Assembly: GCF_024464655.1 (NCBI RefSeq)
Contig: NZ_JANHAV010000004.1
Coordinates: 186,001 to 250,000, forward strand
From: Halobellus inordinatus
Lineage (GTDB): Archaea > Halobacteriota > Halobacteria > Halobacteriales > Haloferacaceae
Length of the DNA: 64,000 nt
Direction of reading: 5' to 3'
The notes below the pieces were generated by a model, which saw only the letters and a list, made by a program, of their open reading frames with translations, made no database searches and had not been told where the DNA came from. The position numbers and the translations under genes are program-made. This document shows, piece by piece, positions 22,970 to 28,723 of the stretch; the stretch's first letter is position 1; every line of letters begins with the position of its first letter.

Positions 22970-23785
22970 ATGCGCCCCGTTCGTGCACCCAAACTCCTTG
23001 GGGGTGTGACAGTCCTCGTCCTCGCGATCGTCCTCGCCGGACGCGTTCGACGCCGGCAGGTGTCTGCCCTTCGAATCGAGGACCTGCGGCGGGCGGCAGC
23101 AGTCGGACGCGAGCAGCCAGTCCCGACGAGCGAGATCAACGACCTGCCGGATCCCGTTCGCCGCTACCTGTCCAGTGCGCTCCCGACCGACCATCCGTGC
23201 ATCGACTCAGTTCGGCTCGAACAGGCTGGAGAGTTGCGTCTCGGCGACGCGTCCTCACCCTGGAAGTCGTTCACTGCGACACAGCACATTACGGTCGATC
23301 CGCCGGGATTCTTCTGGAACGCGTCGATCCGTCTCGCGCCGCTCGTTTCGGTGGCCGTCCACGATCTGTATCGGGACGAAGACGGGTCTGCGAGCGTCTC
23401 CCTGTTCGGTGTCGTTCCGGTCGACGGCGCCGAGCCGAGTCCGGAGTTGAACGAGGCGGAACTGCTTCGGTATCTCGCCGAGGCGGTCTGGTATCCGACG
23501 GCGTTACTTCCGAGTGAGGGCGTCACTTGGGAACCGATCGACGACAGTACGGCGACGGCGACCATCGAACACGGGGACGTCTCTGCATCACTCGAGTTCT
23601 CGTTCAACGAGGCCGACGAAGTGACCCGAGTGTACGCCGAGGAGCGGCATCGACGAGTGGACGACGGATTCGAACCGACACCCTGGTCGGGGTACTGGTA
23701 CGATTACCAGACACGGAACGGGATGCGGATCCCGATGGCGGGCGAAGTCGTCTGGCATCTTCCCGAGGGAGATCTGAACGCCTGA
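22970..23785 (+). CDS. DUF6544/DUF6920-type protein, apparently shortened by a late stop
   Basis: 271 residues. A single N-terminal membrane segment (LLGGVTVLVLAIVLAG) is followed by a soluble domain with LPDPVRRYL near residue 60, WKSFTATQHITVDPPGFFW, LLRYLAEAVWYPTALLP and GVTWEPIDD, all hallmarks of this uncharacterised family. The protein ends GDLNA at a TGA (23783-23785). Reading on in the same frame gives RGRVTDVSYNEW and a second TGA at 23822-23824, and the family normally has a Trp-Arg-Gly-Arg motif at exactly this point. The simplest reading is a TGG-to-TGA change that removes 13 residues. Function unknown; whether the shorter protein still folds is open. Confidence 0.72.
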   Translation: MRPVRAPKLLGGVTVLVLAIVLAGRVRRRQVSALRIEDLRRAAAVGREQPVPTSEINDLPDPVRRYLSSALPTDHPCIDSVRLEQAGELRLGDASSPWKSFTATQHITVDPPGFFWNASIRLAPLVSVAVHDLYRDEDGSASVSLFGVVPVDGAEPSPELNEAELLRYLAEAVWYPTALLPSEGVTWEPIDDSTATATIEHGDVSASLEFSFNEADEVTRVYAEERHRRVDDGFEPTPWSGYWYDYQTRNGMRIPMAGEVVWHLPEGDLNA

Positions 23786-23873
23786 CGAGGGCGTGTCACG
23801 GATGTCAGTTACAACGAGTGGTGACCGGGAGCGATCGGTATTCTCGACTGACGGGAATTTCATCCAAAATACA

Positions 23874-25282
23874 AGGCGGATACCCCGAGGCTTGACCTCG
23901 GGGAGGAAACCGACACTACCCTTCACAAACCACGCCCGATGGCAAGACTGACTCCCCAATTTCAATATGTATCTTTAAGTATCTCTACCATTTCTAATGA
24001 AGTATGGCGGTTGTTCGGAACATCCAAGTAAAACTCGACGTTCCCCAAGAGGACTCTAAAGTTCTCGATGAGACGTTCGATCAGTTCCGACAGGCGGCGC
24101 AACACGTCGCTGACCACGGATGGGACGACAACCCCCACAACATCACGGACACCAAGAACACGCTCCACAAAGAGACGTACTCTGACGTTCGTGACGAACT
24201 CTCCCTACAATCCAGCCTCGTTCAATCAGCCCGTAATCTTGCGGCCACCGCACTCGGGAACTGCAAAGACCGCAAGTTCGATGGCGAGAAAGCCAGTAAG
24301 CCCGAGTTCCGAGGGAGCGTCGTCGTGTACAACGGCCGAACCATTACGTACAACGACGACCACGTTTCCCTCGCTACGACCGACAAGCGCGTGACCGCTG
24401 AATACGTCACACCGGTCAACGAGGAAGGAACGCCGTTTGAGCACTACTGGACTGACGAATGGGAGAAAGCCGAAGCAACGCTCCACAAGCGTGATGGCAC
24501 GTACTACCTTCACGTCGCTGTGAAGAAAGACGTTGAACCTGATTCTGATTCTTGCGACGAACAATCCGAGAACGGAGTGGTTCTCGGTGTGGATTTGAAC
24601 GTGGATGGGTACGTCGCCGTCACCAGCACGGGAGCGTTCTTCGGTAACGCAGACTCCCTCAATCACCGACGCAACGAGTACGAGCGTCGGCGTGGCAACC
24701 TACAACAGACAGGCACTCGGTCAGCGCACCTCACCATCAAAAGCATCGGGTCACGCTTCGCCCGGTGGAGCGCCGACTACCTCCACCGTATCTCCAAAGC
24801 AATCGTTCAAGAGGCTGTGAAGAACGACTGTACGGCGATTGCGTTCGAGAACTTGAAGCATATCAGGAAGCGCATCTCGAATGCCAGTAAGTTTCAGCAG
24901 TGGGCATTCAAAGAACTCCAACGTCACGTTGAATACAAGGCTGAAGAATACGGTATCGCCGTGGATGACGTGAATCCCGCGTACACGAGTCAACGGTGCA
25001 GTCACAGCGAGTGCGGGTTCACGCACGAAGATAACCGCGACGGTGACGATTTCGAGTGTCTGAAGTGCGGGAAGCAGTTGCACAGCGATTACAACGCCGC
25101 TCGAAATATCGGGTGGCGTCTTATCCAGCACTGGCTCAAGTCTGGTGCTGGACGAGCCACGAGTCAACTGGCTCTGAAGTCAGGGACGTTGAACGCGAAC
25201 GGTCGATTCCGACCTACCGAGTTACTCGGTTAGAGCGGGAGTCCACTGACAAGCCTCGGGGCTTGACCCCGAGGCAGTTGAC
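23874..25282 (+). mobile_element. TnpB-only IS200/IS605-group (IS1341-type) element
   Basis: The element contains tnpB and no tnpA transposase. Subterminal hairpins lie on both sides: CCCCGAGG-CTTGA-CCTCGGGG at 23883-23903 and CCTCGGGG-CTTGA-CCCCGAGG at 25254-25274, sharing the loop but with the arms exchanged. The right boundary is placed at 25282 because the flavodoxin-type gene on the other strand keeps its family sequence up to that point and then reads into the element. The left boundary is approximate. It would depend on a TnpA supplied elsewhere for movement. Confidence 0.75.
24004..25233 (+). CDS. tnpB: TnpB, RNA-guided DNA endonuclease of an IS1341-type element
   Basis: 409 residues, full length. 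The RuvC-like nuclease residues are all present: Asp in LGVDLNVDGYVAV, Glu in AIAFENLKHIRKR and Asp in HSDYNAARNIGWR. The zinc finger is complete (CSHSECGFTHEDN then FECLKCG), so the enzyme looks intact. TnpB proteins cut DNA next to a short motif under guidance of an RNA from the element's right end, which helps the element persist. Translation begins at the ATG at 24004, behind the left-end hairpin. The C-terminus overlaps the region expected to encode the guide RNA scaffold. Confidence 0.93.
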   Translation: MAVVRNIQVKLDVPQEDSKVLDETFDQFRQAAQHVADHGWDDNPHNITDTKNTLHKETYSDVRDELSLQSSLVQSARNLAATALGNCKDRKFDGEKASKPEFRGSVVVYNGRTITYNDDHVSLATTDKRVTAEYVTPVNEEGTPFEHYWTDEWEKAEATLHKRDGTYYLHVAVKKDVEPDSDSCDEQSENGVVLGVDLNVDGYVAVTSTGAFFGNADSLNHRRNEYERRRGNLQQTGTRSAHLTIKSIGSRFARWSADYLHRISKAIVQEAVKNDCTAIAFENLKHIRKRISNASKFQQWAFKELQRHVEYKAEEYGIAVDDVNPAYTSQRCSHSECGFTHEDNRDGDDFECLKCGKQLHSDYNAARNIGWRLIQHWLKSGAGRATSQLALKSGTLNANGRFRPTELLG

Positions 25283-25300
25283 CCACGTACTGTGCGGCTT
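25150..25300 (+). ncRNA. Predicted omega (re)RNA of the TnpB element
   Basis: By the known arrangement of IS605-group elements, the guide RNA scaffold spans the end of tnpB and the right-end hairpin (25254-25274), finishing at the element border near 25282. The following 16-20 nt, which belong to the interrupted flavodoxin gene, would act as the guide. Only the hairpin and the position support this; the 5' end is not visible. Confidence 0.4.
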
Positions 25301-25607
25301 CGGCTTGCTGTTCTGGTTCGTCGACTGCAGAAGATAACGATAGTTGAAAGAATCCTGTGGGTCGCACGTTCAGAATCTCGTTGTTCGAATCGACGAACTC
25401 GCGGACAGCTTCGTGATGTTTCCCGATGTGGATCGAGGACCCGACGAGGATTGCATCGAACGTCTCAATGTCCAAGTCGGCCGGAAGTGATTCGACGTCG
25501 ACCGTCGTCACATCGTGTCCACGCCCCAGCAGCGTGTCTTCGATCCGGGCGGCGACCTTCGCGGTCTGTCCCTCACCCGTCCCAAACAGTACGAGAATTG
25601 ATGCCAT
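25283..25607 (-). pseudogene. Flavodoxin-family gene truncated by the TnpB element
   Basis: From the ATG at 25607 the frame reads MASILVLFGTGEGQTAKVA, the FMN-phosphate loop of flavodoxins (menaquinone-dependent protoporphyrinogen-oxidase/HemG-like group), then ILVGSSIHIGKHHEAVREFV and GFFQLSLSSAVDEPEQQAEAAQYV. At 25283 native sequence stops; the frame continues GQLPRGQAPRLV through the element's right end and stops at 25230. About one third of a usual 170-180-residue protein is missing. No clear 3' remainder is found beyond the element's left end, although joining the flanks would read QYV-DEIPVSREY before a stop. A functional FMN protein is unlikely. Confidence 0.78.
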
Positions 25608-26900: not shown

Positions 26901-27323
26901 TCACTCCTCGCTTTCTTCGACTTCTTCGCCCTGCGCTCTCGTTCGTAGATGCTTGGAGATAGCGCCTACGACATTCTCGATTGCCACGACCACCTGCTGG
27001 CCGCAGGGGTCGTGCCAATCGCTCCGTACAATCCGCGAAACACTGACGACCCGAAAGATAACGAATACAGGGTCGAAGACCGGATCGAGGAACACAGCGA
27101 AGACGTTCAGCTGAAACAATCCATCTTGGAGGAGACGTACAACCACCGAACAGGTGTTGAACAGACCAACGACGCGGTCAAGGACTACGGCCTCGGGCAC
27201 GTTCGCGGCCGACGCGTCGACGCACGAACAGAAGTATTCGTTGCGCTCTGCCTACGACTTGTCGTCGCAATCACCAACTACGAACGAGGATACGATCCCG
27301 GTCGAGAGAAACTCACTCTATGA
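26901..27323 (+). pseudogene. C-terminal remnant of a haloarchaeal DDE transposase
   Basis: In one frame the sequence reads SLLAFFDFFALRSRS, a TAG (26946-26948), then MLGDSAYDILDCHDHLLAAG, VVPIAPYNPRNTDDP, YRVEDRIEEHSEDV, QTNDAVKDYGLG and ALCLRLVVAITNYERG. This is the C-terminal half of an IS4/IS5-superclass transposase common in haloarchaea, with the final Glu region of the DDE triad. The N-terminal catalytic part is missing and there is an in-frame stop, so it is inactive. I see no terminal repeats around it. Confidence 0.78.
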
Positions 27324-28024: not shown

Positions 28025-28723
28025 GGTCGTGTTAACTTTGGCATCGATTCCACCAGACAGCGAGGGCTTGGAGCCACGATTCTGCTGTCGTCGGCTCCAC
28101 GTGACTGAACGTATTTGAAAACGAAGAGGTTCGTCGTTTTATCTCATGAAATAGACGTTCGACAGCATTCCGATTGCCATAGCGTTCATATCTGCAATCG
28201 AGGCCGTGTCGATCGAGGGCAGTTTGGAGCCACTGAGCATCGTCGACGAGAAACACGGCGGTTTCGACATCGTGTTTCTCGCGTAATTCGCTCAGAAAGA
28301 TCTCAGTGAGGCCGGTTGTATACGTGCTAAAGAGCCGAATATGAAGGAATCTGTTTGTTTCAGGATCGATGGCGGCATACAGCCAGTATTGCTGATCATT
28401 GATTCGAATCACGGTTTCGTCAAGTGCAACGTGATTCGGGCTCGCACCGCCGTCGGGCTGTAGATCGGCCTTCTGCACCCAGTTGTGGACGGCCGTTCGA
28501 GAGCGTTCGACACCCAACCTTTCAAGAATCGAGATGGTATTCGAAAGTGATAGTCTTGCCACGTGCATCTGAATACCGAGCCGCATCGCGAACTCGGGTG
28601 TCCGCTGACGCTCCACAAAATCTAATTCGATCCAGTCGCTACCATCGCTGAGGCGTGTGATTTCTGGCATAGAGCACTACGAAATCACCACGCCTCACTC
28701 TTCACCCTTAACTTGACACGACC
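28025..28723 (-). mobile_element. Complete IS6-family insertion sequence with 8-bp target duplication
   Basis: 699 bp. The ends begin GGTCGTGTTAACTT (28025) and, on the other strand, GGTCGTGTCAAGTT (28723), matching at 12 of 14 positions. The element is flanked on both sides by the same 8 bp, GATACGCT (28017-28024 and 28724-28731), the target duplication size of IS6-family elements. The intact duplication implies a fairly recent, simple insertion. Confidence 0.92.
28032..28670 (-). CDS. IS6-family transposase (haloarchaeal ISH15-like)
   Basis: 212 residues and apparently intact. The DDE domain shows Asp in HVALDETVIRINDQQYWLYA, a second Asp in AVFLVDDAQWLQTAL and Glu in NRNAVERLFHEIKRRT, with the tight D-E spacing of the IS6 family. 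A helix-turn-helix (LSLSNTISILERLGVERSRTAVHNW) precedes it. It fills almost the whole element, with stop and start near the terminal repeats. It catalyses replicative (cointegrate) transposition of this element and could join separate replicons, a possible route for acquiring the island that follows. Confidence 0.93.
   Translation of the reverse strand: MPEITRLSDGSDWIELDFVERQRTPEFAMRLGIQMHVARLSLSNTISILERLGVERSRTAVHNWVQKADLQPDGGASPNHVALDETVIRINDQQYWLYAAIDPETNRFLHIRLFSTYTTGLTEIFLSELREKHDVETAVFLVDDAQWLQTALDRHGLDCRYERYGNRNAVERLFHEIKRRTSSFSNTFSHVEPTTAESWLQALAVWWNRCQS

What the first reader, a model, noticed from the sequence alone, without database searches (positions are those of the whole stretch)
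23874..25607. Intact TnpB element whose predicted guide matches the gene it broke
The right end of the element abuts the flavodoxin gene at 25283. In IS605-type systems the bases just beyond the right end are the guide, so this TnpB would target the unbroken flavodoxin allele. The nuclease residues are all present. The left flank does not obviously hold the missing 3' part of the gene, though joining the flanks gives a plausible QYV-DEI continuation.
Basis: partly seen in the sequence, partly recalled or inferred. Interest (0 to 1): 0.6.

Follow-up and report, generated by a model that had tools for sequence, protein, structure and literature searches.

The report
TnpB transposon in haloarchaeal flavodoxin gene
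An intact but ordinary RNA-guided transposon (TnpB, IS200/IS605 group) sits inside a flavodoxin-like gene of a salt-loving archaeon, and its guide RNA would, as such elements are known to do, match the unbroken copy of that gene; the odd part is that the other half of the gene is gone.

Summary
The element is real and intact. It encodes one 409-aa TnpB with all RuvC and zinc residues and no tnpA. The 3' end has covariation support for a guide-RNA scaffold, so the predicted guide starts at 25283 and reads flavodoxin sequence. That a TnpB guide matches the insertion site is the known rule for this family, not a new finding. No intact allele with TTCAT plus the guide was found in the genome or in 167 family genomes, so the target is inferred. 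The flavodoxin gene is broken: about 70-80 C-terminal residues are missing, and the left flank is the end of an unrelated DUF6544 gene. The "QYV-DEI" continuation is explained by the motif: in this frame TTCAT+C always reads D-E. So the two ends seem joined to two different TTCATs, with the DNA between lost. One clean parallel (48 bp lost between two TTCATs) and two weaker ones were found, all in one draft genome. Repeat-mediated deletion, recombination between copies or misassembly are not excluded.

The parts
23859..23863 (+). TTCAT, target/transposon-associated motif (TAM) at the left flank, not part of the element
   Evidence: TTCAT at this place in 12 of 13 aligned copies, TTAT in one; kept in empty sites
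23864..25282 (+). Whole TnpB element (1419 bp), IS200/IS605 group, IS1341 type
   Evidence: borders from copy alignment and empty sites; 97.7% identical copy at another site in Halobellus ramosii plasmid NZ_CP101826
23883..23903 (+). left-end subterminal hairpin CCCCGAGG-CTTGA-CCTCGGGG
   Evidence: sequence; conserved in copies
24004..25233 (+). tnpB, 409 aa, RuvC D197/E282/D362, zinc Cys 332/337/352/355
   Evidence: dN/dS 0.07-0.16 against full-length copies
25113..25282 (+). predicted omega/re-RNA scaffold overlapping the 3' end of tnpB
   Evidence: RNA fold z = -4.3; 42 pairs, 96% of cells paired, 18 pairs with changes on both sides
25253..25275 (+). right-end hairpin GCCTCGGGG-CTTGA-CCCCGAGGC, followed by AGTTGAC
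   Evidence: (helix 5)
25283..25302 (+). predicted guide CCACGTACTGTGCGGCTTCG (length 16-20 nt inferred from ISDra2)
   Evidence: position after the right end in all copies; PMC8612924
25283..25607 (-). 5' part (codons 1-108 and one base) of a broken flavodoxin-domain gene; its frame runs 17 codons into the element and stops at 25232-25230
   Evidence: Flavodoxin_5 E=5.9e-22, profile positions 1-96 of 145; most homologues about 190-200 aa
22970..23785 (+). left-flank gene (DUF6544), shortened by a TGG to TGA change; homology continues to about 23820

Best explanation
This is a recently mobile, TnpB-only IS200/IS605 (IS1341-type) element. A Y1 transposase, probably supplied in trans, put it 3' of a TTCAT in the codons for V-D-E near residue 109 of a flavodoxin-domain gene (inferred). 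The 3' end of tnpB and the right end are transcribed and processed to a guide RNA (omega/reRNA) whose last 16-20 nt are flavodoxin sequence (inferred from family biology, supported by the covarying scaffold). TnpB with this RNA would cut any TTCAT-CCACGTACTGTG... site, that is the element-free allele or the donor joint, and repair from an occupied copy would restore the element (inferred, known for ISDra2-like systems). The left and right flanks belonged to two different TTCAT sites: the DNA between them, including the flavodoxin 3' end, was lost so that a TTCAT still abuts the left end. Such a loss leaves the guide's match to the original flavodoxin site unchanged.
For: Borders and TTCAT in 13 copies with unrelated flanks; uninterrupted empty sites for sibling copies, with TTCAT kept directly before the guide bases; 97.7% identical copy at another locus; intact catalytic residues and dN/dS 0.07-0.16; covarying 3' RNA structure; Y1 transposases elsewhere in the genome; homologous flavodoxins mostly have D or E, often D-E, right after Y-V, where TTCAT+C would read D-E; missing 3' part absent from the assembly and from the left flank; sibling copy L020 lies between two TTCATs that are 48 bp apart in relatives, with that DNA lost.
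Against: No empty site of this very locus was found, and the nearest flavodoxins are only about 60-65% identical. None of the homologues has a literal TTCAT at the site. No expression data. The three two-motif cases besides this one (L020, L182, L214) are all in one draft genome (G007), and only L020 shows both motifs and the lost DNA in one relative.
Confidence: 0.6

Rival explanations
1. Homologous recombination between two copies of the element at two loci deleted or rearranged the DNA between them and left one copy with the left flank of one site and the right flank of the other.
For: Ordinary for any IS; both flanks still abut intact ends, as this predicts; L182 and L214 also have flanks from unrelated contexts.
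Against: No second copy of this subfamily is left in the genome (next TnpB 48% identical); does not suit the 48-bp case L020; difference pattern against the H. ramosii copy gives no clear mosaic.
Confidence: 0.2
2. Repeat-mediated deletion of the kind described for haloarchaea removed the DNA between two TTCAT direct repeats, before or after the insertion, without the transposase.
For: Dyall-Smith et al. 2011 report deletions between direct repeats as short as 4-6 bp (PMC3119063, section 15); in L020 the shared repeat is just TTCAT.
Against: Endpoints exactly at the element's own motif in several copies would be a coincidence unless the element is involved.
Confidence: 0.2
3. The draft assembly joined two loci at a repeated element, so the chimera is an artefact.
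For: 23-contig draft; a 1.4-kb repeat can mislead an assembler; the other two-motif cases are also in a draft genome.
Against: The flavodoxin 3' end that a second locus would carry is not in the assembly, and completeness is given as 99.99%.
Confidence: 0.1
4. The flavodoxin gene was already a truncated 127-aa gene ending ...YVDEIPVSREYRSLPVTTRCN before a simple insertion.
For: The joined flanks give that open frame.
Against: The tail has no similarity to flavodoxin C-termini (p = 0.65); the core fold needs the missing part (profile 145 positions, 96 matched).
Confidence: 0.1

Closest known systems
ISDra2 TnpB (Deinococcus radiodurans; Karvelis et al. 2021, PMC8612924)
   Same: motif 5' of the left end, guide from the base after the right end, RuvC TnpB, 3' RNA overlapping tnpB
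   Different: TTCAT instead of TTGAT; no tnpA in this element; nuclease activity not tested here
Halobacterium salinarum IS200/IS605 omegaRNAs (sotRNAs; PMC12558985)
   Same: haloarchaeal TnpB with a structured sense RNA at the 3' end and right-end hairpin
   Different: transcription of this copy is unknown
Haloquadratum IS605-type transposons and PATEs (Dyall-Smith et al. 2011, PMC3119063)
   Same: near-terminal palindromes, 4-6 bp targeting sequence kept outside the element, no target duplication
   Different: this copy keeps its core with an intact tnpB
TnpB gene drive on plasmids (Mears et al. 2025 preprint, PMC11870625)
   Different: shown in bacteria, not in archaea or for this element

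Membership tests
IS200/IS605 group, IS1341 type (TnpB only) | TnpB with RuvC-like and zinc-ribbon domains | tested here: met
   OrfB_IS605 itself scored 26.0, below its cut-off 30.5
IS200/IS605 group, IS1341 type (TnpB only) | subterminal hairpins near both ends | tested here: met
IS200/IS605 group, IS1341 type (TnpB only) | insertion 3' of a fixed short motif without target duplication | tested here: met
   sibling copies and their empty sites
IS200/IS605 group, IS1341 type (TnpB only) | no tnpA in the element, mobilised in trans | tested here: inconclusive
   no tnpA between the ends and Y1 genes elsewhere in the genome; mobilisation itself not testable
TnpB/OMEGA RNA-guided nuclease system | structured RNA overlapping tnpB 3' end and right end | tested here: met
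   covariation against shuffles and slid controls, fold z -4.3; no Rfam family hit
TnpB/OMEGA RNA-guided nuclease system | guide-dependent cleavage next to the motif | not testable with these tools
   needs biochemistry
TldR-like domesticated TnpB (nuclease-dead) | loss of RuvC catalytic residues | tested here: not met
   D197, E282, D362 present

The most novel reading that the evidence does not exclude
IS200/IS605 insertions in haloarchaea sometimes use two TAMs at once: the left end is joined to one TTCAT and the right end to the sequence behind another TTCAT on the same strand, deleting what lies between in one TnpA reaction while keeping the guide valid for the original site.
Probability: 0.2. 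Interest if true: 0.55.

Novelty: new member of a known kind. Interest (0 to 1): 0.28.

Why it matters
As a TnpB element it gives, with empty sites of sibling copies, the TTCAT motif and guide boundary for a widespread haloarchaeal subfamily with intact nucleases, which could be useful for archaeal genetics. If the mismatched left flank reflects two-motif insertion, single-strand transposition can delete genes in one step, which I did not find described in the papers I could search.

Tried and rejected
(1) Missing flavodoxin 3' end elsewhere in the genome: only the intact paralogue. (2) Guide target in own genome, 167 family genomes, viral contigs: no full TAM+guide site; two 16-nt viral matches lack the motif and are chance. 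(3) Left flank as flavodoxin remnant: rejected. (4) L231 looked like a 600-bp two-motif deletion but is a wrong pairing of a left end with a separate short element, with host DNA between. (5) L075: left homology stops at the junction because the motif overlaps a start codon. (6) L099, L257 unresolved intergenic gaps. (7) PATE survey: two precise sites (L237, L223), others uninformative. (8) Mosaic test against the H. ramosii copy: inconclusive. (10) Literature searches for IS200/IS605-linked adjacent deletions found nothing on point.

Full report
What is there. The window is G000:C18:186001-250000 of a 3.41-Mb haloarchaeal genome in the genus that also holds Halobellus rufus (G002:C81 and the contig of L080 have the same length, 129,344 bases, and the same element). 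At 24004-25233 lies a 409-aa TnpB. Relatives with 84-92% identical protein occur in Haloferax, Halalkalirubrum, Natronorubrum, Haloarchaeobius, Halobellus and others, and a 97.7% identical DNA copy sits in a Halobellus ramosii plasmid at another place, so the element has moved recently.

Borders. Aligning 13 copies with unrelated flanks gives sharp ends: each is preceded by TTCAT (TTAT once) and ends in TTGAC. In the window this is TTCAT 23859-23863, element 23864-25282, first flank base 25283. Joined flanks of sibling copies were searched in 170 family genomes. Uninterrupted empty sites exist for L076 (98% identity), L021 (many), L133 and L084, with TTCAT (TTTAT in one relative) kept directly before the bases that follow the right end. 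A second survey of related families gave precise sites for L003, L017, L024, L195, L226 and L220 (judged from match coordinates).

Nuclease and RNA. RuvC D197, E282, D362 and four zinc cysteines are present, and the gene shows dN/dS 0.07-0.16 against full-length sibling copies. The last 170 nt fold far better than shuffles (z -4.3, measured with 20 nt of flank) and show covariation on 19 sequences: 96% of cells paired, 18 pairs with two-sided changes, 0 of 500 shuffles as high on four of five measures and 25 of 500 on the fifth; slid controls 35-43% paired. Part of this RNA overlaps coding sequence, so codon constraint may add to the signal. Haloarchaeal RNAs of this kind are expressed in Halobacterium (PMC12558985). 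The guide would be 25283-25302.

The broken gene. The minus-strand flavodoxin gene keeps 108 codons; most homologues have about 190-200 residues and continue Y-V-[DE]-x-[FLI] and then about 75 more. The left flank is the 3' end of a DUF6544 gene, and its continuation of the flavodoxin frame is unrelated to flavodoxin C-termini. The missing part is nowhere else in the assembly except in an intact paralogue on C4. It does agree with flavodoxin being the original right-hand site: D-E follows Y-V in 4 of 17 aligned homologues (acidic first residue in 16 of 17), against 0.8% background for the dipeptide.

Two motifs. The simplest reading is that the ends are joined to two different TTCATs. The best parallel is L020 (G007:C16): relatives G145 and G166 carry two TTCATs 48 bp apart, and the occupied allele has the upstream motif on the left and the bases behind the downstream motif on the right. 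L214 and L182 also join an intact left end to one motif and a right flank from another context. For L182 the motif at the right-hand site is only inferred, since relatives read TTCCC there. All three are in one draft genome, and L182 and L214 could be recombination or assembly effects. Haloarchaea are known to suffer deletions between direct repeats of 4-19 bp (PMC3119063), which is a real rival.

Function. By the mechanism shown for ISDra2 (PMC8612924) and plasmids (PMC11870625), TnpB would cut element-free alleles and donor joints and so keep or spread the element. No such allele is visible, so this step is inferred. The finding is therefore a well-supported ordinary member with one unexplained feature.

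Noticed in passing
L020 (G007:C16:137615, with empty sites L159, L163): TnpB copy whose insertion goes with loss of 48 bp between two TTCATs.
   Followed up: yes
L182 (G007:C28) and L214 (G007:C16): Copies whose left and right flanks come from unrelated contexts, the left one ending in the motif.
   Followed up: partly
window 23785-23820: DUF6544 gene has TGG to TGA near its end compared with G112; about the last dozen codons are lost.
   Followed up: partly
L201, L207, L217, L236, L237 and others: Minimal elements of about 47-50 bp (left end fused to right-end hairpin), most behind TCTAC, like PATEs.
   Followed up: partly
window 28032-28670 and 26949-27323: Transposase fragments: a DDE_Tnp_IS240-like ORF, and an ORF that reads like the end of an ISH-type transposase (not searched).
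   Followed up: no
L080 joined flanks: The TnpB copy of Halobellus rufus lies between inverted repeats of what may be another small element (GGTCCGATTCTCGAACA / TGGTTCGAGAATCGGACC).
   Followed up: no
G000:C4:33907-34455: Intact flavodoxin paralogue (195 aa open frame) in the same genome.
   Followed up: yes
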